Shown piece after piece: positions 12,044 to 58,452 of a stretch of 64,000 nucleotides of DNA (positions within the stretch are counted from its first letter, which is position 1; the number at the start of each line of letters is the position of its first letter). Location of the stretch: NCBI GenBank assembly GCA_010356995.1, contig ML996697.1:182153-246152 (forward strand). Reading direction: 5' to 3'. The notes beneath the pieces were generated by a model. That model did no database searches. It was not told the DNA's origin and saw nothing but the letters and a program-made list of their open reading frames with translations. A program made the position numbers and the translations under genes. The stretch is from Trichodelitschia bisporula. Lineage: Eukaryota > Ascomycota > Dothideomycetes > Phaeotrichales > Phaeotrichaceae.

Positions 12044-12139
12044 TCCGGTATGGTCTATCGGCTAGGATCACCCGCTTTCATTCATGAAGCAGCTGTGTAC
12101 AGCACCGGGTAGGGCCGGGTTCGACTCCCGGTACCGGAA
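12044..12139 (+). tRNA. tRNA-Glu (anticodon UUC) with a 24-nt intron
   Basis: The acceptor stem tccggta (12044-12050) pairs perfectly with taccgga (12132-12138), followed by discriminator A. The D arm gtctatcggctaggat matches eukaryotic tRNA-Glu. The anticodon stem is acccg/cgggt, the loop is C-T-TTC-A-C with anticodon at 12077-12079, and the T arm is ccgggttcgactcccgg with a perfect B box. Between A37 and C38 there are 24 extra nucleotides (12081-12104), exactly the canonical tRNA intron position. Removing them leaves a normal 72-nt tRNA. Confidence 0.96.
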
Positions 12140-12145
12140 CTTCTC

Positions 12146-34900: not shown

Positions 34901-35243
34901 AGTAGTGTTCCCCTCCCCTACCAGACCCCCTGCACACCTAAACTTCGCCGCTGGCCTAGACTTTTCTTATTTTCGAGCGCGATCTAGCTAGTGGTATCGG
35001 CACTTTCCTATATCACCCCATCTTGTCCACCATGCCTTTCCCATGCCCGCCCTTCCACGTCATGACGCGATTTGCTTGCCCGTCATCATCCCCGCCTGCG
35101 TCTAGAATCAAGTTTAGACTCATCGTATGTCGAGACGTTTGAGGCTTCCCTTTCCTACCTCTGATCAGCTACGCCAGATCGTCGGCAGATCGGCACATAA
35201 TCCTTCTGGAAGGAAAAAACAAAGAAAATCATACCCTTGATTG
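28954..35243. other. Gene-poor stretch, possible decayed genes
   Basis: No gene could be modelled with confidence over about 6.3 kb. On the minus strand, 30863-31413 contains one hydrophobic segment (ILAIVGYRIGALLAVAYLLT) followed by a helical stretch (DQALERLNREIQRSASLLQQ), which may be an exon of an unrecognised membrane-anchored protein. A lysine-rich peptide lies at about 30395-30600, minus strand. Neither could be tied to a start or a family. From about 34570 to 35000 the plus strand is C-rich and probably belongs to the promoter/5' UTR of the gene starting at 35244. Confidence 0.4.
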
Positions 35244-37845
35244 ATGAAGATGGTGCCCTCTGCTTTCCTGTCGGAAAGGCTCGCCAGTCTCGGGCTGGCG
35301 CAGTACCTCCCGGTGCTTGCGGAAAACGGGTTCGATGATTGGGACACGGTGCTTGACATCACCGAGGAGGACCTGCAGACGTTGGGCTTCAAGCGGGGCC
35401 ATCGTCGCGTGCTCCAGCGCGAGATTGCCGCCCATCGGGGCCAAGCCTACCCCTCCGTCGTTCCCCCCACCTTCATCGACGTCACCCAAAGTCCAGGCTT
35501 CAGTGCGTACAACACCGGCACGAGCACAACGGCTACCAGCTCGGCGGAGCCAACCCCATTCGAGAAACCGCAGCCACAATTGCCTAGCGTCACAACTTCC
35601 TCGGAAACCAGCCAGTCCACCAAACGCTCCAAACGCCGCTACCGATGGCATCCTCGGCCAGACCCTCATGCTCCAAAGCGTCCCAAGACGGCTTACGTCA
35701 ATTTCGCCGACCACACGCGTATGGATCCTACCGTTGTGGGGCTGTCGTTTGTCGAGATTGCGCGCGAGGTCGGCCGACGCTGGCAGGTCATGAATCCGGC
35801 GGAGAAGCACGCGTGGGAGGCGAATGCTGCCGTGGCGCTGCAGTACTACGAGAACCAGATGGAGGAGTACCGCAAAACCGACGATTACCGCAAGTACCAG
35901 GATTACCTAGAGACCTTCAAGAAGGCGCCGGGAAAGTCGGCACGGGAAAAGATGCGCAGTCCGCAGCCCGGCCAGCCGAGCATCTCAAGCACCGATCCCG
36001 GTATGAGCCCTGTGCTGCGCCGATCCGAGTCGGTGTGTTCCCGCGACAGCCGTAGAATCTCCCCGGATTCGCCACGTGACCATGATCATTCGGTCGGCCA
36101 AAGGGACCTCTCGCAAGCATTGAGCAGGGCTTTGGGCGAGCTCACGCAGCTGAGACAAGAGTTCAAGGATGTGCGGCCGTACGATGCACATGAGCTATTG
36201 CCGCGCGAGCTGGCAGCGGCCACCATCCGGAATCTGCATACCGGACTGGGCAGCTTGATCTTCATCTACAGTGACCGACAGGCCGAAGCTCTGCTGGACA
36301 GCATTTACGAGCAACATCATGGCGCGCCGGATGCGCTCACCCTGGCGGAATTCTATCTCGCGCTGGCACTGGGCGGCTCCTCTCCCATGATGCCGGACAA
36401 CGTAGTTGACAAGCTCTTCGTATCTGCATGCGGCATGATTGAGAACGGGGCGCTGCGAGACACGACCTCATTGGGAGTCCTGCGGGTCTTGCTTTGCTTA
36501 TGTCTGTATGCGTTGCTAGAAGAGGGAGATGGCCCGCCTCGTGCGTTCATTGGTAAGTACATGCCACTTCACGCATGTATCAATCCCACTGCTTTCAAGC
36601 ACAATGCTTATTCCGACAGCTGCCGCTTTGAACATCGCCAAGTTCCGATTCCCTCAATTTCCAAACGATGAACTAGGGAGAGCTTCACAAGAAGAATGGC
36701 GCAGAGTGTACCGGTCGTTGGTGTTCTTGGAATGGTATAGTCAACACCGTCGTCTCGTTAAGCACCTCTAATCGTCCAAAGCTGGATGTCCTACTCCCTA
36801 AACTACCCATGCAACGTCCACAGTCACATCAAGGCATGTCCATCACAATATAGTCCAGCCCCCTAAACTAACACCCCTCAGAACGTCCTCCCTCAACCCT
36901 CCACCTGCCCCACCCCCCGCCCACCCCCCCCCCCCCCCGCCCCCACAGACACCACACTTCAAACCCACGCCACCCACACCGCCCCCCCCCTCTCCGACAT
37001 AAGCAGCGCAACCCACCCCTCCTCCCCCCCCCTAACCCCCGACCACCTCCGCTGCTTCGCATCCCAACTCTCCGCCTGGACCGAAACCCTCGAACCCCCC
37101 CTCGCCCTCCCCTCCCTCCTCTCCCCCCCTTGGCGCCCAACCCTAACCCCCCCCCAAACCCACGCCATGCTCCTAATCCACATCCTGCACCTCACGGCAA
37201 CAACCCTCCTCTACCGCGCCCCCCTCCTCTCCGACCACCGCCACCTCTCTGCCCCCTCCTCCCCCCTCCACCCGCGCTTCGACACGCACCTCCAACCCGC
37301 AGACCACGCGCAATGCCGTGCGGAGCTGGACCGCGCAACAAGCACCGCAGCCCAGGTCCTGGAGCGGCTCAACGACGCCCCCGCGCTGGAACCGTGGTGC
37401 TTCCTCCTCATGTACGTCCCCCACCCCTCCCCCCCTCCCCTCTTCCCTCCCAAACTAACCCCCCACCAGTCCCCTCGCCTTCACCCTCAGCACCTCCACC
37501 CTGCTCCTCTCCACCCTCCCCGGCCCCGCCCACCCCCCAATCCAAACCCCCCTCCAAACCCTCCGCCTCTTCAGCACCGACAAAACCCTCGCCGCACGCC
37601 ATCTCAACGCTTTAGACCCTTTGTACGCACTCCTCGCCCCGCGCGCGCCGCCGACTCCCGCGCCCCCTTCGACGAAGCAGAAAATCTCGATCCATGACTT
37701 ATTGCAGAGCGAGCCGGTTCCCCAGGCTGCGCCGACGCCGCCGCCGGCGGGCGCTGCGAGGGATGTACTGAATGCTGTGTTGGGGCTTGTGGGTGTGCGG
37801 CGGGAGGGGGTGAGGGCGAGCGATCCGTATCCTACGCCGCCGTAG
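35244..37845 (+). CDS. SAM + HMG-box + fungal transcription factor-like regulator
   Basis: Five exons (35244-36552, 36620-36734, 36782-36833, 36882-37411, 37470-37845) close in frame to 793 residues. Residues about 8-61 are a SAM domain (LGLAQYLPVLAENGFDDWDT, LQTLGFKRGHRR). Residues about 144-215 are an HMG box (PKRPKTAYVNFADHTRM, GRRWQVMNPAEKHAWE). The C-terminal half resembles the fungal TF middle homology region usually paired with Zn2Cys6 fingers: VLRVLLCLCLYALLEEGDGP, EEWRRVYRSLVFLECWMSYS, LNYPCNVHSHIK. A proline run follows from near residue 505. The third intron (36834-36881) has a GC donor; splicing it is needed to keep the conserved frame. From 36880 to 37620 the coding strand is extremely C-rich. 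Likely a nuclear DNA-binding regulator; target unknown. Confidence 0.85.
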
Positions 37846-45870: not shown

Positions 45871-48140
45871 CTACACTAATGCGATTAGACGCCGGCATGG
45901 GCTTGCTGCTAGCCATGCCTTCTCGTTGATCTCGCCAATATTGACCCTTCTGCATGTCCCATCGCTATGCCGCTCGAGCTGCAGTGCCAAAACCATTGGC
46001 ATAATGTCAGGGATCTCATCAATAGCACGTCTGGCGATGAGGGCAAACTCATGTGTGCCATTATCGTATCCGCCGGATTCCCAGTGCTCATCTAGCATTT
46101 GATTGGTATTTCCAATGACATTACCCGTGGCATCGAGGATGTCCGGATTTCCCTTGATGGTGGAGTACAAAGTGCTTGGATTCCCTCCACGCAAAGTGAA
46201 CGTGGCAGTGTCCGTCCAGAAGAAAATAACATATTCATCGGGATATTCGAAGAGGGACCCAGCGGCAAGACTTGGCAGTTGGGAAACGACGTTGTCCCAG
46301 GTCACCGGATCGTCGATCACGGACTCTTGGGAGACTGGCTCGATGGTGAGCGGATCGCTCTTGTGGACATGGCATCTGATGTTCGGGTTTTCGGTCTCCA
46401 ACCTCTCCTTGCGCACACCGACGTTCACCTCTCCAATCCACCCCATCCACGACCAGCTTGGGAATGTGACGCGCCCGTGCTTTGAAGTCACAGGCAAGGT
46501 CGATAGGACTGCTCGCCGCTTCTGCCCGGTGAAGGTATCCCATGCCATGCCAATGTCGAACCGGCTCCGCGGGATTCCCCAGTGAAATTGCTCGCCCGAG
46601 ATGCGCTGAAAGGCTCTGGTGATGCCGGTGAACGCATCACTGATATCACCCTCGAAGGAAAATTGCCGTTGGGTAAATCGTCTCACCAAAATCTGATACT
46701 GGCTCCAGGTCCTCTCGGATGAGTCGCCGACCTCGCCAAAGTTTAGAAACGTGCGTTGTACGGTCAATTCGTTACCAAGGCTGGAGAAGGAGCGGAACCT
46801 GGGCTCCGAAAGCTCAAAATAGGATTCCTCGCAAAATGCCGCTTCCATGCATCCCCAGTATATTTGCTCAGACGTGAAGACCAGTGCACGGCGTGAGAGG
46901 GCTCGCTCCTGCATTGTCCACCCCCGTCGACCCCACATTGTTGTATCGGTGTAGTGACCGCCGCTGAGGATGTTGGAATATATGGTCGTCATGAAGGATA
47001 ACCCATCTCTGAAGCCTGGCTCACTGCTGCCTGGCTCGATCACCACTATTTCTTGCTGCAAGAAGAAGCGAGTGTTCGGTCGGAGACCTGGTAATCCGGC
47101 GGAAGCGTCGGGGCCCGCGGCGGCCACGATTGTCAAGTATGCGGCGCCGTATATGGCGTGCATGTTGGAGATTTGCACGACTTTGTCGGCGTCGCTATCC
47201 TGAAGGATGCAAAGAGCGTCAACCCAAATATATTCAATGCCGAGTTTCAGGGCCAATTCCCGGGCGTCTGAGATGGTCAAAGCAACCGACTCGTCCTGGA
47301 GGGCTCCTGGCTTTTGAAGCTCTTCGATGTTACCGCTTGTTGCCTTCAACTTTTGCGATGCGCCCCATACGTAGCTGAGGGCTGCATATTTGACCGTGTC
47401 TAGCTTCACGGAGTCCATCGTCACGACGCATTGACGGTTGGTGTCAATCATGCGCACGCTGGATACCCTACACTGTATCAGTCACAAGCTCTGACATATC
47501 GTCAAACTTACAGAAACTGATCAGACTCTTCAGAATCTCGGCAGAGCTGGTGGCACTCTTCTGTATCGCAAATACGAATCCACTCTCGAATCCAATCCAG
47601 GTTGGCAACAAGCGGTCTCCGCCGACCGCCAAAGACCATTTGATCAACATCTGGTCTTGGGTCCCGAAATGACCCGTCTACCTGGACGGAAAGGGCTCCA
47701 ACGTTGCAAAGTTGGAAACAGTCGTCGAAGTACCCCTCTGGATACCAGGAATAGTCTTCGCCATCGACTGTCAGTGTCACCTGAAGTCGCCGGACAGCTA
47801 AGTTTTCGTGTTTGGCGAAGGAGAACCTCCCATATGCATGGCGATAGAACGTTACGTGGAATTCCTTTCCGTCCAATGATGTGCCTTTCTGCAAGTCGGT
47901 GACACCGCGTCTTTCAATCATCTGCCAAATCAAAGCACATAGGCGACATCTGTGCGTCCGGTCTTTCAACTCGGACAGCAGCCCGACTATACGGCTTGGA
48001 GTGTACATCGACTTAAACGGCGGCAGGTCGTCTCGAGAATTTGCATCTTCCAGGACAGCAGAGAGATCTGAAAGAGTTGGGTATCGGAAGGCCTGGAATG
48101 GGATTTGCTGGCAGATGGTGCACAAGGACGGCGAAGCCAT
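45871..48140 (-). CDS. HET-domain (heterokaryon incompatibility) protein
   Basis: Two exons on the minus strand (47512-48140 and 45871-47467), intron gtaagt...gtgtag of 44 nt, encode 741 residues. The N-terminus has paired cysteines (CTICQQIPF, HRCRLCALIW) common before HET domains. The HET domain itself shows its three conserved blocks: KYAALSYVWGASQ, ELALKLGIEYIWVDALCILQ and WGRRGWTMQERALSRRALVF. The C-terminal half has no recognised fold. HET-domain proteins trigger cell death when incompatible individuals fuse, or act as general immune-like effectors; many family members have no known partner. The frame looks intact. No NLR or second incompatibility gene is adjacent. Confidence 0.93.
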
Positions 48141-48731: not shown

Positions 48732-50782
48732 CTACTGCTTGGTAGGAACCCGGCGCAGCACAAAAACGGCAACCTCGATGCCATCCGTTGGATCGGGACC
48801 CTCGTAGTTGCGCTTGTTCAAATCTTCGATGAACTGAACCGTCAGCGCCTCAGCAGAGACATGCTCCTGCTGGCGCTCTGGCAACCTGACCTCGCGGAAA
48901 TTATCGACCGAGTTCCGCCACTGGTGCGAGTGGACGGGACTCGGCCCGGGCCGCACAGTGGTCAAGCGCGTTGTGAGGCCTTTGCGGAAAGCGGCGGTGA
49001 TATTGGCCCGTTCCTGGTGCGACCACCACTGTATCCAGTCCCTTTTTTGCAGGCGTACCACATCAGTGTCCTCATAGACAACTTCCAAGACACCCCCACC
49101 CGCAGTTTGCAGCTCGCGCGCAAGGTCGGCGATGCCTGTTGCCATTTGCGCGAACTCGGGCATGGGAATCAAAACGTTCATTCCGTTGTCAATGGCTGCG
49201 GCCGTGTCGCTCGGAAGCGTGTGCGTGGTAACGAGCTGGCGGAGCAGGGGCTCGATAAGGGGCTTCAAGTAAGATTTGGTAAAGGTTGTGGCTCCAGTTT
49301 TCGTCGGGTACATGAAAACGAGAACTCCATCGTCCGTTAACTCACAGATACGGTCCTTCAAAAACGAGTTCTTCGAGTCGACACTGAATAGATCCGCAAA
49401 CTCCGTTTCGGAAGATGGGGTAATGTAGCGCTCAATGACGGTCCAGTTCATGGAGCCGGGCGCGACGGCTGGTCGAGCTCTGAAACCGTAGGGAAACGGA
49501 TTGTGGATATGTTCAGGAAGTGAAAGCGGAGCCAGCATGTTGTAAATGCCTACAGTTTGGTTCAGTGAATCCGGCCCATCAATGGCTCCCATCCCCGAAT
49601 GCAAAAACCAAGGACGCGGAGGTTCAGCCGTGAGGCCTTGACCGGACATTCCATGGCAGACATTAACGGCTCGCGGCCTTTTTGACGCCGCGATATGGTG
49701 CAGGAGGTCGACGCACGCTGGAGGCGTGCAATCTTGGCCCGACAGGCCTGGCAAGCTGTGTGAAAAGACTGCAAGAACTGCTCTCTGCTGTTGCGAAAGG
49801 TCGTACACGCCGGCGTTCACTGTAGTGGAGTCAAGGGACTGCTCGAAGGCACGTACGGGAGGATATTAGGGGTCTTACGCATCGCATTTTCAGCTACTTT
49901 AAGCCAAGAGGCATCGCCGGAGCCTGGACTACGATCCGATTGACGGCCTTTAACAAGCCGGGGAGGTGTAGCGTCAGGGGACATGGCGCGATTGAGATGT
50001 GAAGTAGGAGTGGAGCTGCGGTCGCGAGTGGTATCTGAAGCGGGAGTGGGGGTGAGGTTGCGGTCTGGAGGTGGCGATGTTGGGATTTGGACGGGTACCA
50101 CAGCTTTCGGAACAGATGGCGATGTGCCCCAGTTGAGCTCCCTATCGTCGGATGGAGGTGTTTGCGGACCTTGAAGGCGCTGAAGTGAGCGTTCGATTAG
50201 ATATGCAGGCGCAAGGCTTTGCTGCGATGAAAAACAATCGTCCCCCAGTTCGTCGTCAAGGTGGCCACGGAAACGTGATGTTCGAGCAGAGAAAGCCGCG
50301 CCCCGCGAGTCGGCAGCGATATAATGGGTAGGCAATGGGGCCCAACGAGTAAAGCCGGGACGGCGATGGGCTGTCGCGTTCACAGGTATCGCCGAGCGTA
50401 CCGCCGAGTGTGCCGCCGAGTGCGTAGTCGTCACCTCACGATGCTTGGAAACCGAGCTGACAAAATGGGCTTGCGCTTCAAGCGGGTCCAAGTAAATTCT
50501 GTCTTTTTCGCAACCAGAGAAGATTGGTGTCGTTGTCTCTGCTGTTGCCCAAGTGGATTCGCGCAAGGACTCGTTGACGTCGGTCTCGCGAACTCTGCAA
50601 CCTCTGGACACTGAGACTTCCAAGGGTGCAGCTTCATTTTCCGAGGCTGTAGAGGTGCTTGACTCTGGCTGGCTTGCTTCCGTTAATGCCCCTCCCGCAG
50701 ACTCTACAGAGAGGAGTTTCGTCGTTTGAAAATTCTGGAGAACTGGCAGATTGTGGCAGGCGGGAGCGAAGGATTTTTGCAT
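48732..50782 (-). CDS. Hypothetical fungal protein with disordered N-terminus, 663 residues
   Basis: Two exons on the minus strand (49879-50782 and 48732-49819), intron gtaaga...ctacag of 59 nt in phase 1. The ATG at 50782 (MQKSFAPACHNLP) is the first in the frame; an upstream exon is possible. Residues 1-300 are Ser/Thr/Pro-rich and disordered. Around the junction is DASWLKVAENAM, followed by YDLSQQQRAVLAVFSHSLPG and then blocks such as RICELTDDGVLVFMYPTKTG, IQWWSHQERANITAAFRKG and DGIEVAVFVLRRVP at the C-terminus. I recall this block order from a widespread, multi-copy hypothetical family of filamentous ascomycetes with no assigned function. No catalytic motif is evident. Confidence 0.75.
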
Positions 50783-53700
50783 CACTGGGCTGCTGTTGAG
50801 ATCTGCATAAGGCGTACGGCTACCTTGAGCATTGGCTGTACGCACCGCTGATCATAGAGAGGAGCTGGTAAGTGACCTGACGTTCGACGGGTGATATGCT
50901 GTGAGCTGCTAACTTCATATAGCGAGATGTCCACGGGCGAAAATGGCCCACTTGTGAGCAACAGGTGAACGTTTAATGACCACTGGGCTTAGGAGCCATA
51001 AGAGGGGAAGAGTAGATGGCCAAATGGTCTAGGCCTTTGAGGACGAGGAGGGGACGGGCTTTTGTCGGCCTAGAACGCCGTCCAAGCAACGTTAAGTTTG
51101 ATGAAAAGAGGTAGGGTAAAGGAGGTGGGGAGCGACTTTGACTTGAGCAGGAGAATCAGAAACGGTTGTGACTGTTACAACTCTTTAGTAGAGTCGGCCA
51201 CCGCAGTCGCTCCAGCAAAGAAGTGAGAAGCGAGTGGAAGGATCGCAGTCCAGAGTCCAGTGTACCCTCTTCAGTTCTCACATGAGCCTGGGCCGGACCG
51301 GCCGAGAGTCTGCACAGCTGCTTGGGTTCAGAGGAGGGGAGGGAAGGGGAGGGGGAGGGGAGACGAGGGGTCGGCAAGATGGAGATGCAGCGAGCGGAAG
51401 CTCCCTAAGAAGAGCCTTCCAACGGCCGGACACGATGGACATGAGGGATGAGTGGACGGGTTCGAGGGAAGAGACTGCAAGCAGAGGTTTTTGGAAGCCC
51501 AGAGATTCGTTCTGTGTGCCAGTCCATGCCTCACCAGCGGTCCCGAACGTGAGTATTCCCTGCAGTCCCAGGCAACCAGCAGGTTGCAACTGCAGTGCAG
51601 AAGCAATGGATAAGCAGCAACAGCAATACTTAAAGGGACGGACGCAGTAGAGAAAGCGGGTAGTTTGAAGGATAGCAAACAATAAAAGTGAGTAATGGAG
51701 AAAACGACGTGCGGAGTGGGAACGAGAGCCGACGAATTAGGATGGATGTGCAAAACGATGCCCATGAGGGGACAATGTTACCATCAAAGGTCAGAGCAGT
51801 GGACGAGAGGCCAGAGTAGTCGAGAGGGGCCGCCCGTCGGTAGCAGTTAGTGGGCCCTACTACAGTGAGGGTCCATGCCCGCTAATACCACAGTAGGGTA
51901 CCGTAGACAACATAGGCACTCGCAACCCTTCATATATCTCCGATGGAAGGTAGCAAAGGGCTGGATACCGCAAGTGAAGCTCTCCCACACCATCCCCTCC
52001 TCCACCACTCCCCTTCATCATTCACACCATCACCACCGCCGACGAAGTACTCATCCACTAGCAAGCCTGCAGTGTGGGTGAGTGAGCTGTGGCTGCACGG
52101 CCGGCTGCCACGGCTACCAACCTGCTGCCGCCGCATAAGGCCTCGACCGCGATGGCCCAAACCTCTCCACATTCCTGCAGACAGCAAGCCAACCCCACGT
52201 CGGTCAGTGGAGAGGCGTGGCTTGGGACAACCTTTGAACCACACCGCGTCCAGCCGGCCTCTAGGATTGGTTCGGCTGCTTGTGCGCGGCCGCTGCCGTT
52301 GTCGCCCTGTCGGACCTTGGGGACGATTTTGTGTTGAGATTTCCGATGACCATAGTAGTAAAACGCCATCATCTTATTTTTGGAATGATATGGTTCGATG
52401 CTGTTTCCGCTTGAACGTCTAGCCGAATAGGAAGCCTTGGACCCACGAAAAGCCACAGCCGCCACGCGCCATTCGAGGCGGGGGAAACACAAACGAATTA
52501 GCTGGCCGTAATACGTAGTAGTTTTCTTTTGAGGGGGGAGGGCATGATCGAAAATCGAGATGCTCAGCACAATCATTATTTTGGTGATCGTCGTCCAAGA
52601 AAACTGGTGCTCTTTGGCCCGAGTCGAGGTTGCAGGGTGGGCCGTTCCTAGCGGGTTAGACCCGACGTGGGTGCAAAAAGCCATCGAATGATATTGGAAT
52701 GTTCACCCGCCTTCATACCCATCCTGAGGAACAACAAGTAGTTCCAACCGAGTAAAAAAATGCCAAAAAGTCTCCACATGGAGTTCCTGGACTTCTCGAT
52801 GGTTGCAAGGGCCTGGATTGTCCATATGGGGAATGGAGTACCGGTACGGCTACCGAATATGAAATGAGGCGCCAGCACCGTGAATACCATAGCACGGGTA
52901 ACGGAAGTCCGAGCTCCCGAGGAAATACCGTATTTCTGAATCGATTTTCTCCGATAGGATAAACGCCCACCTGTTCGGCTAGGCAAAAGAGTTCTCGACT
53001 CCCCATCGGAATGTAAGCCGCCCATGCCCTCCTCCAAGAACGGGTGAATACGTACCTCGCCCACACACCACCACGATACTACGTGGAAGGAGACAGAAGT
53101 GAAATGAAAGGGGTTAACTGCTCTCATCCCTCGCGCGCGCACAGTTGTGCAGCTCGTGTTCTGCTTCTGCTGGGTCGGCAGGTCGCATAACGTATCCCAC
53201 TCTTGTGACATGTCCGTGGCCGGGTCGGAAGCGGTCCAGACTCTCAAAGCCTGGGGACGCCAGTCAAGATGCAGAGGGCCAGAGGGACAGAGGGACAGCT
53301 GGGGATCCAGACGCTCGTTCTGTAAGACCGCCACTTTACTCTTCCTCTCCAACAGATCTAACCACTGGCGTAACCGTTAAGGGACCCTTGCAAAGCATTG
53401 CTCATCGTGGTGTGGTTGTGCGTCGGAAAAGCGGGCTTATCTCTTCGCCTGTGGCATGGGCGTATGCTTGCCAACGCCTTCCGTGTCGATGGGATGTCAG
53501 AACTTCCATATTGAACCATGCCAAAGTGAAAAGGCTTGCAAACTAATGCCATGATCGCGTTTAGCTCCACGATCAAGATGTGTGGGGAGACGTCGGGAGT
53601 TTTCTGTCATTCCGACCCCCCTTGCTGACCTTGATTCCAACGCGCGCGCTCACCGCGACGCCACGACGCCACGGCAAGCGGACTTCAATTACCGATGGTA

Positions 53701-55152: not shown

Positions 55153-58100
55153 ATGGCAGCTCAGGAGATCCAAGATTTGCTCATCATGGTGGATGCCACC
55201 GCCTCCATGTCGAATTATCTCAGAGCGCTGCAAAAGTCGCTTCCTCAAATCCTCTCCATATCTGCACTGACTGGCTGCTTCTCTCGCATTGGAGTGCTCG
55301 CGTACCGGGATTACTGCGACGATAACCTGCTCGAGTGGTCCGGATGGCTCAACTGTGATGCAGCGCCGGGGACTGCGCAGCCGAACCTCATTGCATTTGC
55401 CAATAACCTGTATGCGGACGGTGGAGGCGACGCGCCAGAAGCCACGAAAACGGGGCTCGCCCGGGCGTACCAGGAGATGCGGACGGAAGCATTGACGATC
55501 CTTCTATTCTACACCGATGCCCCTCCTCATGTCCCGGCCAATAGTGGCCCGTACTCTAACCATGCCTCCGAGCTGCGCGCACTCAATACAGAGGGAAGCT
55601 TTGGAGGTACTGGCCACCTCTTTGCGGACTGGGTATCGGCATGTCGAACTCTTCGGTATGGTGAGAAGAGGGCGAAGGTATTTTGCACCCTCGCGCCGTG
55701 GATGGGCGGCAGCGACTGGGGCTACTACGCGTTTCTCTCCACCATCACCGGCGGGGCATGCTTCTTCCTCAAAAACGAAAACCCGGTCACCATTTCGGAG
55801 GTTACTATCGGCGTGCTTCTCGCCTGGATGGGTGTCGAAAAGGCTGGGGCGGAAGAGGTCAAACTCTCTGCGGATATGTCTCGATATATTTCCGTCGATG
55901 ATATCAAGAATATCCAAAACGAGGAGGACAGCACCGCAAGCAAGTTCTTTGTGGCCAAGAGCTACTCAAGGTCCAGCCAGTCAGTTGGAAGCAACACCAC
56001 AAGGATACAGCTAGCCGGAGATGTAATGAAGAAACACCTGCCGAAGAAGTCGTCGCCGCTCCAGGACTTTGCAAAGAGGTATACCACTGATGAGGCTTAC
56101 AAGAAGATTGTGGCCACTCAGCTCAGGAAGATTATTGAGCATGACGTTCTCGCAATCTCGCTGAATCCCGTCTTTGGCAGCCTCTGGCGTGCCGTGTCCA
56201 ATGACCGCACGAATCCTGACCGGGACGAGCTCATTTCGGCCTTTGGCCTCGCTGTGGAGCGTATTGATCAGGGTGAAGAGAAGCAGAGGATGAAGACCTG
56301 GCTTGAGCAGTCTTATGACTATACTGCGGAAGTTTTGGAACTCATCGAATTGGTCCCGGTCGACCAACGCTTCCCATGCGTTTTCTTGGATCCAACACTT
56401 GATTTCGCTGCTGCGCCTTCCAAGGATGAAGCGGACGAGGAAGAAAACGACGTCCCCATCACCAAGTTCCGGCGCGATGAGCTTTTGGAGATTGGCCGCT
56501 CTTGCGATTACCGAATTCTCCGCAGGCTCGGCAAGATCCTCACCCAGCTCACTTTCGTGAATTCCGCGGACCAAATGCCGGCTCACATTGCGAGCATGGA
56601 CGACAAGGACGTGCCCAAGATTCCGCTGGCTCTTGCCCACTCAGATTACAAGCGGAAGTTCTGGGGTATCCTTTTGCACGTTGTGGTTCCGGGAACCATG
56701 CTGGGCCCTCGTCCGGCGACGTTGTTGGCGGCGCTGAGCCTTCATCTGGGGATCCGGCCCCTCGAATCCGCCGCAGTCCAGCAAATGCTCGCGTGGCGGG
56801 ATAAGTGGAATACTCTCGAGATCCCGGAAACTTGGAATACTAGCTGCCTCAGCCTACTTTTGGATGCAGACCTTGCGTACACTAAACTGCGGGACGAGGC
56901 CCGTCCTGTTGCGGAGGGAAACCCGAAAAGCCTCCTAAAGCCGAGTGACCGCAAGTTGTTCGAAATCTTGGTCTCCTACAAGCTTCTTGAGATGAACATG
57001 CTCACAACATTGTCGGCTAAAGTCGGTTGGACCCCGGACAAGACGCCGATGGCGATCGGCCCGCTCGTTATCTGCAAACGCTGCAAACTTCCCCGCTCAG
57101 TCACCATCATGGGGCTCAATCAGGCCTGTGGACTTTGCCTCGTCAAGGACTGGGGTTCCGAAGAAGTCCGCCAAAAGTCGCTCGCTCGGCGCGTCAGCAA
57201 AGATGATACTGAAGCATCCACGGCGATATGGGTGGAATGCGCCGATCGAACCTGCCGAGGCCAGTATGTGGTTTACAATACGGAAGCCTTGAATGTCAGG
57301 GCCAAATGCCACTACTGCAGGAACCAGCAGAAGGCGCCGTTGCTGGAATGCAAGAAGTGCCTGAATCACATGATCTATCCCGACAAATACCGTCCGGCCG
57401 GTCTCGATGTCTCGAAGTTCCACTGCGTGGCCTGCACAGTCGGGTCCCCTACCTCCATCATCGACGTGGAGACCACGGCTGACGAACTCACCAAAGAAAA
57501 TGGTACAGCCTGGCTCCTCATGAACCAAAACCAAAAGATCGCAGAGCCCTTCTCCAAGCGCACCCTCTTCCATGTCATCTCCACCGCCGGCACCGCCGAT
57601 TTCGCCACTCTCGTCTCCCTCTTCCCCCCTACTTCAACCCCACTTACCCTCAACCGCAAGCCCATCCACAACACCCCCGCCCTGATCGCCGAACTAGAAC
57701 CCTGGATCACCCGCCGCCGCACCCAACGCTCCACCTGCAGCCTCTGCTTCACCTCCCACCGGCCCGCCGATCTGAACGCCGCCTGCAGCCGCCGCGGCTG
57801 CTCCCAGCCCATCTGCCGCACCTGCCTGTCCTCCTGGTACGGCCTCAACAAACCCGGCAGCATCATCAACCCGTCCGCGCTGACCTGTCCCTTCTGTCGC
57901 CGGCACCCCGCGCCCAAGACGCTGACCGCGTACGGCATGGGCATCCACACGGTGGGTGATCTGCGGACTGCGCTCGGGGAGCGTGGCGAATGGATCCATG
58001 CCTGGTGCGCGCAGTGCGGGTTTGCGCGGAGGTTTGCCGAGCGTGCGTGTGCACGGGGTGCGCCGCCTGAGGTGCGGGGTTGGGTGTGCGAGGGGTGTGT

Positions 58101-58452
58101 CGAGGAGAATGCGCGGGTGGCGAGGGAGGAAGCGGAGCGGCTGGAGGTGCTGGCGCTAGCAGCGCGAGATGATGCTGAGGCTGCGAGGAGGGCGGAGGGG
58201 GCGCGGAGGGCGATGGATAGGGCGCTTGCAAAGGTGCCGGTTTTGGAGAGGAAGAAGTGTCCCGAATGTGGGATTCAGACGGAGAAGGCGGGTGGCTGTC
58301 ATCATATGGAGTGTTTTTGTGGGACACATTGGTGCTGGTTCTGTGGGGATAAGCAAGACTCGGCTACGATCTACGAGCACATGGACCGGAAGCACGGGGG
58401 TATGTTTGCAGGAGAGGCTGGATATGGGAGTGATGACGATGATGATTATTAG
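55153..58452 (+). CDS. vWA domain + RBR-type RING E3 ubiquitin ligase-like protein
   Basis: Intronless frame of 1099 residues. Residues about 8-210 are a von Willebrand A domain with a MIDAS motif (LLIMVDATASMSN; later LLFYTDAPPH). From residue 641 there are CX2C zinc ribbons (ICKRC/CGLC; CADRTC/CHYC; LECKKC/CVAC). From residue 862 a RING-like module follows (CSLC...CSRRGC...CRTC...CPFC), then an IBR-like pair (WCAQC...CEGC) after an intervening stretch. A coiled, Ala/Glu/Arg-rich helix leads to a RING2-like module at about 1036-1064 (CPECGIQTEKAGGCHHMECF, then CWFC), where the Cys in GGCHHM would be the catalytic thioester Cys of an RBR ligase. The end is acidic (GSDDDDDY). Inferred role: ubiquitin transfer to partners captured by the vWA domain. 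Confidence 0.88.
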   Translation: MAAQEIQDLLIMVDATASMSNYLRALQKSLPQILSISALTGCFSRIGVLAYRDYCDDNLLEWSGWLNCDAAPGTAQPNLIAFANNLYADGGGDAPEATKTGLARAYQEMRTEALTILLFYTDAPPHVPANSGPYSNHASELRALNTEGSFGGTGHLFADWVSACRTLRYGEKRAKVFCTLAPWMGGSDWGYYAFLSTITGGACFFLKNENPVTISEVTIGVLLAWMGVEKAGAEEVKLSADMSRYISVDDIKNIQNEEDSTASKFFVAKSYSRSSQSVGSNTTRIQLAGDVMKKHLPKKSSPLQDFAKRYTTDEAYKKIVATQLRKIIEHDVLAISLNPVFGSLWRAVSNDRTNPDRDELISAFGLAVERIDQGEEKQRMKTWLEQSYDYTAEVLELIELVPVDQRFPCVFLDPTLDFAAAPSKDEADEEENDVPITKFRRDELLEIGRSCDYRILRRLGKILTQLTFVNSADQMPAHIASMDDKDVPKIPLALAHSDYKRKFWGILLHVVVPGTMLGPRPATLLAALSLHLGIRPLESAAVQQMLAWRDKWNTLEIPETWNTSCLSLLLDADLAYTKLRDEARPVAEGNPKSLLKPSDRKLFEILVSYKLLEMNMLTTLSAKVGWTPDKTPMAIGPLVICKRCKLPRSVTIMGLNQACGLCLVKDWGSEEVRQKSLARRVSKDDTEASTAIWVECADRTCRGQYVVYNTEALNVRAKCHYCRNQQKAPLLECKKCLNHMIYPDKYRPAGLDVSKFHCVACTVGSPTSIIDVETTADELTKENGTAWLLMNQNQKIAEPFSKRTLFHVISTAGTADFATLVSLFPPTSTPLTLNRKPIHNTPALIAELEPWITRRRTQRSTCSLCFTSHRPADLNAACSRRGCSQPICRTCLSSWYGLNKPGSIINPSALTCPFCRRHPAPKTLTAYGMGIHTVGDLRTALGERGEWIHAWCAQCGFARRFAERACARGAPPEVRGWVCEGCVEENARVAREEAERLEVLALAARDDAEAARRAEGARRAMDRALAKVPVLERKKCPECGIQTEKAGGCHHMECFCGTHWCWFCGDKQDSATIYEHMDRKHGGMFAGEAGYGSDDDDDY

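What the first reader, a model, noticed from the sequence alone, without database searches (positions are those of the whole stretch)
55153..58452. vWA domain fused to a zinc-ribbon array and RBR-type (RING1-IBR-RING2) ligase
One intronless 1099-residue frame joins an N-terminal vWA with a MIDAS motif, several CX2C ribbons, a RING-like module, an IBR-like pair and a RING2 module with the GGCHHM catalytic-type cysteine. RBR ligases normally use UBA, UBL or ankyrin modules for substrate choice. A metal-dependent vWA capture domain would suggest a distinct ubiquitin-ligase class. The long helical linker and acidic tail look regulatory. Architecture is seen in the sequence; ligase activity is inferred from family knowledge of RBR proteins.
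Basis: partly seen in the sequence, partly recalled or inferred. Interest (0 to 1): 0.7.

Follow-up and report, generated by a model that had tools for sequence, protein, structure and literature searches.

The report
vWA protein with RBR-like ligase end
A probably fungal gene encodes one protein with a metal-binding capture domain at its front and, at its back, the catalytic module used by ubiquitin ligases of the parkin kind, but the parts in between do not match the standard ligase layout.

Summary
The frame is real: window 55153-58452, 1,099 residues, codon use like its neighbours. The front is a vWA domain with a full metal site (Pfam VWA_4, 27.9 bits alone, cut-off 27; mostly confident AlphaFold core; vWA folds in the PDB). 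The end is a RING2 module (Pfam IBR_2, 35.0 bits, cut-off 27; parkin RING2 by sequence) with all eight zinc-ligand positions filled and the spare GGC-HHM cysteine, C1049.

The middle is only partly right. The first module is RING-like but all-cysteine and closest to the FANCL RING (below cut-off), not the C3HC4 RING1 of RBR ligases. The 'IBR' is one CX2C...CX2C pair; it fails the C6HC signature and does not match an IBR profile that recognised six of seven left-out IBRs of the same genome.

So it is not a textbook RBR. Most likely it is an RBR-derived transthiolating ligase: the RING binds the E2, C1049 takes the ubiquitin, the vWA (perhaps with the ribbons) holds the substrate. No fungal collection was searchable, so spread and conservation of C1049 are untested, and AlphaFold gave no confident fold for the ligase half. 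New variant of a known kind.

The parts
55153..58452 (+). whole gene, one exon, 1,099 aa
   Evidence: open frame; codon use and no in-frame intron signals; elsewhere in the genome only RING2-sized matches were found (best candidates only)
55165..55827 (+). vWA domain, residues about 5-225
   Evidence: Pfam VWA_4 27.9 bits alone, cut-off 27, stretch 79-126; 22.1 in the whole protein; 40 bacterial and viral relatives aligned; AlphaFold2 block pLDDT 73-94 over 11-130 and 171-220, 33-58 over 131-170; Foldseek lists integrin, alpha2delta, CLCA1, Rpn10 and anthrax-receptor vWA structures, best E 7e-7
55192..55206 (+). MIDAS motif D14-x-T16-x-S18
   Evidence: D 39 of 40, T and S 40 of 40 relatives, partly by construction because these columns lie in one of the two search patterns
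55420..55440 (+). GGGDAPE loop, residues 90-96 (second MIDAS loop)
   Evidence: G91 and E96 in 40 of 40, D93 in 38 of 40 relatives; not in the search patterns
55516..55530 (+). DAPPH 122-126 with D122 (third MIDAS loop)
   Evidence: D122 in 34 of 40, H126 in 40 of 40 relatives
55840..57057 (+). mostly helical middle region, residues about 230-635, no known family
   Evidence: no Pfam match there at E up to 1; model mostly under pLDDT 50
57073..57138 (+). zinc ribbon 1: C641 C644 C659 C662
   Evidence: sequence
57238..57318 (+). zinc ribbon 2: C696 C701 C719 C722
   Evidence: sequence
57349..57435 (+). zinc ribbon 3: C733 C736 C758 C761
   Evidence: sequence; weak Zn_ribbon_12 match, 13.7 bits, cut-off 27
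57736..57897 (+). RING-like module with FANCL-type spacing, eight Cys: C862 C865 C878 C883 C888 C891 C912 C915
   Evidence: Pfam FANCL_C 17.9 bits, cut-off 27.3; PDB 4ccg FANCL E 0.034; 72.9% to an own-genome RBR RING1 profile over 35 columns
58006..58098 (+). single zinc ribbon in the place of an IBR: C952 C955 C979 C982
   Evidence: sequence; no match to IBR
58090..58230 (+). long helix before RING2, residues about 980-1026
   Evidence: block pLDDT 62-84 over 981-1030 and 61-87 over 980-1029 in the separate model; no related sequences covered this part in either job
58258..58395 (+). RING2 module: zinc-ligand positions C1036 C1039 C1054 C1056 and C1061 C1064 H1076 H1081
   Evidence: Pfam IBR_2 35.0 bits (cut-off 27) and IBR 24.7 (cut-off 24.3); parkin, ARIH2, ARIH1 and RNF216 chains by phmmer; aligned with RING2s of five RBR-type proteins of the same genome
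58297..58299 (+). C1049, candidate thioester cysteine (GGC-HHM)
   Evidence: aligned with the GGC of parkin chains and invariant with 5 of 5 own-genome RING2s; parkin ligand scheme with C431 free from PMC3305615
58420..58449 (+). short acidic tail GYGSDDDDDY
   Evidence: sequence

Best explanation
A transthiolating ubiquitin (or ubiquitin-like) ligase derived from the RBR kind. The FANCL-type RING (862-915) recruits a charged E2; the modifier passes to C1049 of RING2 and then to the substrate. The zinc ribbon (952-982) and the long helix (about 980-1026) stand in for the IBR and the IBR-RING2 helix as the hinge. The N-terminal vWA, through its metal site, with the middle region or the ribbons, holds the substrate. 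Shown here: vWA subtype, fold and metal residues; RING2 family match and its spare cysteine. Inferred: E2 binding, thioester, hinge role, substrate role of the vWA.
For: RING2 is over the Pfam cut-off and aligns with parkin RING2, best chain 5caw, E 1e-6. All eight ligand positions of the parkin scheme are filled and C1049 is left over. The triad of parkin is Cys, His, Glu (PMC9834252, passages); C1049 and H1051 (Cys+2, position recalled) fit; the third position is H1059, and the aligned 5caw chain also has His there. The best-scoring own-genome match of the RING2, 39% over 69 residues, lies in L002, a protein in which I read RING, IBR and RING2 by eye. FANCL's RING binds an E2 (established knowledge). 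Scrambles with fixed Cys/His do not reproduce the matches. vWA.
Against: No canonical IBR and no C3HC4 RING1, although known RBRs use RING1 for E2 docking and the RING1-IBR interface for allosteric ubiquitin (PMC9834252 passages). The FANCL_C match is below its cut-off. AlphaFold gives no confident C-terminal fold. The third triad residue is His, not Glu. No orthologues seen, so conservation of C1049 is unknown. Nothing here ties the vWA to a substrate.
Confidence: 0.6

Rival explanations
1. A plain RING ligase: the FANCL-type RING passes ubiquitin straight from E2 to substrate, and the RING2-like module is only a zinc fold that binds ubiquitin or protein.
For: The RING's best Pfam and PDB matches are FANCL, which acts as a plain RING (established knowledge); no IBR.
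Against: RING2 keeps the ninth, non-ligand cysteine with GGC-HHM, which a purely structural module would not need.
Confidence: 0.22
2. A canonical RBR ligase whose RING1 and IBR have diverged beyond recognition by sequence but keep the fold.
For: Order RING, zinc ribbon, helix, RING2 is that of RBRs; the RING gives 72.9% to an own-genome RING1 profile over 35 columns, and one true own-genome IBR (L005) also failed the same profile test at 3.7%.
Against: C952-C982 with H949 and C966 cannot fill eight ligands in the C6HC order; RING spacing is C-x4-C-x4-C-x2-C, not C-x-H-x2-C-x2-C.
Confidence: 0.13
3. Not a ligase: a zinc-rich vWA scaffold protein with a ligase end that no longer works.
For: No activity data; no relatives of the whole protein seen.
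Against: All RING2 ligand positions and the active-site motif are intact; codon use suggests a gene under use.
Confidence: 0.05

Closest known systems
RBR E3 ligases (parkin, ARIH1/2, RNF216)
   Same: RING2 module with the eight zinc-ligand positions and the active-site Cys and His; RING, zinc module, helix, RING2 in that order
   Different: no C6HC IBR, the RING is not C3HC4, a vWA at the N-terminus
FANCL RING (Pfam FANCL_C, PDB 4ccg)
   Same: C-x2-C, then C-x4-C-x4-(H/C)-x2-C-L-x2-W and C-P-x-C, as aligned
   Different: Cys replaces the ligand His; match is under the family cut-off; FANCL has no RING2 (recalled)
Plant vWA-RING proteins (group FHH02 'von Willebrand factor type A', 8 Arabidopsis RING proteins, PMC6118397, passages)
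   Same: vWA joined to a RING in one protein
   Different: listed as RING proteins apart from the RBR group; no RING2; their vWA was not compared here
Bacterial and phage VWA_4-type vWA proteins (L013, L029-L112)
   Same: same vWA subtype: DxTxSM, GGGDxPE, DAPPH
   Different: matched through the vWA only; what else those proteins carry was not studied

Membership tests
RBR ubiquitin ligase | RING1 of C3HC4 type | tested here: not met
   eight Cys with C-x4-C-x4-C-x2-C spacing; 72.9% hhalign to an own-genome RING1 profile over 35 columns, leave-one-out controls 94.4-99.0% in 6 of 6
RBR ubiquitin ligase | IBR of C6HC type | tested here: not met
   five Cys and one His at 949-982; no Pfam IBR there; hhalign 1.4%, leave-one-out controls 86.8-98.4% in 6 of 7 and 3.7% in one
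RBR ubiquitin ligase | RING2 with eight zinc ligands and a free catalytic cysteine | tested here: met
   by sequence; ligand scheme from PMC3305615 section 5
RBR ubiquitin ligase | ubiquitin thioester on the RING2 cysteine | not testable with these tools
   needs an assay
RBR ubiquitin ligase | catalytic cysteine conserved in orthologues | tested here: inconclusive
   no relatives of the whole protein in viral or prokaryote collections; no fungal collection could be searched
RBR ubiquitin ligase | RING1-IBR-RING2 fold | tested here: inconclusive
   two AlphaFold jobs, mean pLDDT 52.1 for 850-1099 and mostly under 60 there in the full-length model outside the helix
vWA domain proteins | vWA fold | tested here: met
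   (Foldseek output gives no query range; vWA is the confident part of the model)
vWA domain proteins | complete MIDAS | tested here: met
   D14, T16, S18, loop 90-96, D122 by sequence; metal binding itself not tested
FANCL-type RING | match to FANCL_C at its cut-off | tested here: not met
   17.9 bits against 27.3; near-identical spacing except His to Cys

The most novel reading that the evidence does not exclude
A class of ubiquitin-thioester ligases in which a RING of FANCL type, not an RBR RING1, feeds a RING2 across a single zinc ribbon, and a bacterial-type vWA with a metal switch chooses the substrate: a transthiolating RING-RING2 ligase without an IBR.
Probability: 0.35. Interest if true: 0.7.

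Novelty: new variant of a known kind. Interest (0 to 1): 0.42.

Why it matters
The IBR is described as structurally conserved and found almost exclusively in RBR ligases (PMC3305615 section 5). If C1049 carries ubiquitin here, a full IBR would not be needed for RING2 chemistry, and a metal-dependent vWA would join the substrate arms used by such ligases. Both can be tested with purified fragments.

Tried and rejected
Canonical RBR: rejected as a filing because the IBR and RING1 signatures fail. My regular expressions for RING1 and IBR also missed several RBR-type proteins of the same genome, so they are weak evidence alone; the profile test is better, though its rows were picked by hand (7 IBRs and 6 RING1s, not all that one search lists) and several are close kin of each other. 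IBR hidden in the ribbon array 635-765: 3.4% or less to both profiles. Paralogues: only RING2-sized matches, and none for residues 633-770; these searches score best candidates only. VWA_4 elsewhere in the genome: none at E up to 1; other vWA families were not searched there. Relatives of the whole protein: no pattern match in viral contigs; in genome contigs 17 stretches matched a pattern and none was confirmed; a single-protein query finds close relatives only. The phage collection gave 26 records, the 20 listed ones all vWA matches. The vWA as single query in viral contigs: one stretch matched, none confirmed. RING2 DNA pattern in viral contigs: no match. vWA alone against PDB sequences: nothing at E up to 10. 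AlphaFold of 850-1099 as a single sequence: mean pLDDT 52.1, not used for fold claims. RING segment against the RING2 alignment and against L002's RING: nothing of note.

Papers: ten searches; I saw the listings, which show only part of the hits. No listed title or abstract start describes a protein with vWA and RBR/IBR. The library lacks most subscription journals, and the 2007 RBR family review was not held. One listed review with both terms, PMC9180643, was checked: its vWA is that of Rpn10 (passages). PMC2904391, PMC9834252, PMC5913265, PMC6118397 and PMC8631298 were seen as passages, PMC3305615 as outline and one section.

Full report
Observation. Window 55153-58452 (+) is one open frame of 1,099 residues. 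Its codon use, scored against three other window ORFs, is 0.72, against 0.58-0.66 in the other five frames, and a scan for in-frame introns with donor, branch and acceptor signals found none. The gene lies in an assembly of 25.65 Mb in 30 contigs. Neighbours include an actin-family protein on the opposite strand, a Nop-domain protein and a HET-domain protein, so the genome is eukaryotic and, by inference, fungal; the species was not identified.

The vWA. Scanned alone, residues 1-240 score 27.9 bits to VWA_4, cut-off 27, over the stretch 79-126; in the whole protein the score was 22.1. The phage collection held 26 records with a match; the 20 listed are vWA proteins. Two scans with a three-row alignment gave 4 viral loci and 80 bacterial loci (84 confirmed, 80 kept). 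I aligned 40 of these 84 fetched loci with the window (37 of 80 bacterial, 3 of 4 viral, picked by hand for variety). T16, S18, M19, D53, G91, E96 and H126 are invariant; D14 is kept in 39 of 40, D93 in 38 of 40, D122 in 34 of 40. Columns 8-19 and 44-53 lie in the search patterns, so their conservation is partly by construction; 91, 93, 96, 122 and 126 do not. In the full-length AlphaFold model the blocks over residues 11-130 and 171-220 have mean pLDDT 73-94, those over 131-170 33-58, and 731 of 1,099 residues lie under 50. Foldseek reports 156 PDB matches at E up to 0.001; the 50 shown include integrin, alpha2delta, CLCA1, Rpn10 and anthrax-receptor vWA structures, with TM-scores by target length of about 0.5-0.7 for several short vWA chains. 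The output gives no query range; I assign these to the vWA because it is the confident part.

The RING2. Residues 1000-1099 score 35.0 bits to IBR_2 (cut-off 27), 24.7 to IBR (cut-off 24.3) and 25.1 to IBR_1 (cut-off 27). By phmmer the best PDB chains are parkins (5caw E 1e-6), followed by ARIH2, ARIH1 and, weakly, RNF216 (E 0.18-0.81). Parkin's proposed ligands are C418, C421, C441, C436 and C446, C449, H461, C457, with C431 free (PMC3305615 section 5). Here the same places are C1036, C1039, C1054, C1056 and C1061, C1064, H1076, H1081, with C1049 free. Parkin's triad is Cys, His, Glu (PMC9834252, passages); C1049 and H1051 fit (the Cys+2 place is recalled), and the third place is H1059, as in the aligned 5caw chain. 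The own genome holds several RBR-type proteins; the best-scoring RING2 match is in L002, 39% over 69 residues.

The middle modules. RBR proteins are defined by C3HC4 - C6HC - C3HC4 (PMC2904391, passages). The first module, C862 to C915, has eight Cys in nearly the spacing of the FANCL RING; FANCL_C gives 17.9 bits, below the cut-off of 27.3, and FANCL 4ccg E 0.034. In the own genome the one FANCL_C match over the cut-off is L015, which I take for a Listerin end (recalled, not tested). The 'IBR-like pair' is C952, C955, C979, C982, with H949 and C966 near. I built IBR (7 rows) and RING1 (6 rows) profiles from own-genome proteins picked by hand and compared by hhalign. The IBR candidate gave 1.4%; leave-one-out controls gave 86.8-98.4% in 6 of 7 and 3.7% for L005, so the test can miss a true IBR. 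The RING candidate gave 72.9% to RING1 over 35 columns (controls 94.4-99.0% in 6 of 6), so it is RING-like without being a typical RING1. RING2 gave 86.1% to the IBR profile, as expected of sister folds. The ribbon array gave 3.4% or less.

Chance. Ten scrambles with Cys and His fixed were scanned. None of five RING scrambles matched FANCL_C or another RING family (two had weak unrelated zinc or receptor hits under cut-off); two of five RING2 scrambles matched IBR families, at most 14.3 bits.

Limits. No fungal collection was searchable, so orthologues and conservation of C1049 could not be seen; whole-protein searches of viral and prokaryote collections gave no relative. From memory only, I expect relatives in other basidiomycetes; this is a lead.

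Verdict. A single-exon vWA protein with a true RING2 and a FANCL-like RING, without a canonical IBR. It probably works like an RBR ligase but does not meet the family definition. vWA joined to a plain RING is known in plants (PMC6118397, passages); no listing in my ten paper searches described a vWA with RBR or IBR.

Noticed in passing
window 45874-47457 (-): A HET (heterokaryon incompatibility) domain protein, 99.2 bits, about 8 kb upstream of the gene.
   Followed up: no
window 35241-36668 (+): One frame joins a SAM domain and an HMG box.
   Followed up: no
window 48732-50845 (-): Two long frames that overlap by four bases, without a Pfam match at E up to 0.001; perhaps one gene with an intron.
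   Followed up: no
window 12044-12140 (+): tRNA-Glu (TTC) of 97 bases, longer than usual, so perhaps with an intron.
   Followed up: no
L013 1396-2121, L014 1429-2196, L029-L032: Phage and crAss-like records carry small vWA proteins alignable with this vWA.
   Followed up: partly
L004, L025, L026 (own genome, contig C23) and L020 (C22): Similar-looking RBR-type proteins; three have IBR hits within about 20 kb on one contig, which suggests a local expansion of RBR genes.
   Followed up: no
L015 (own genome, contig C5): The only FANCL_C match over the cut-off in the genome, at the end of what looks like Listerin (name recalled).
   Followed up: no
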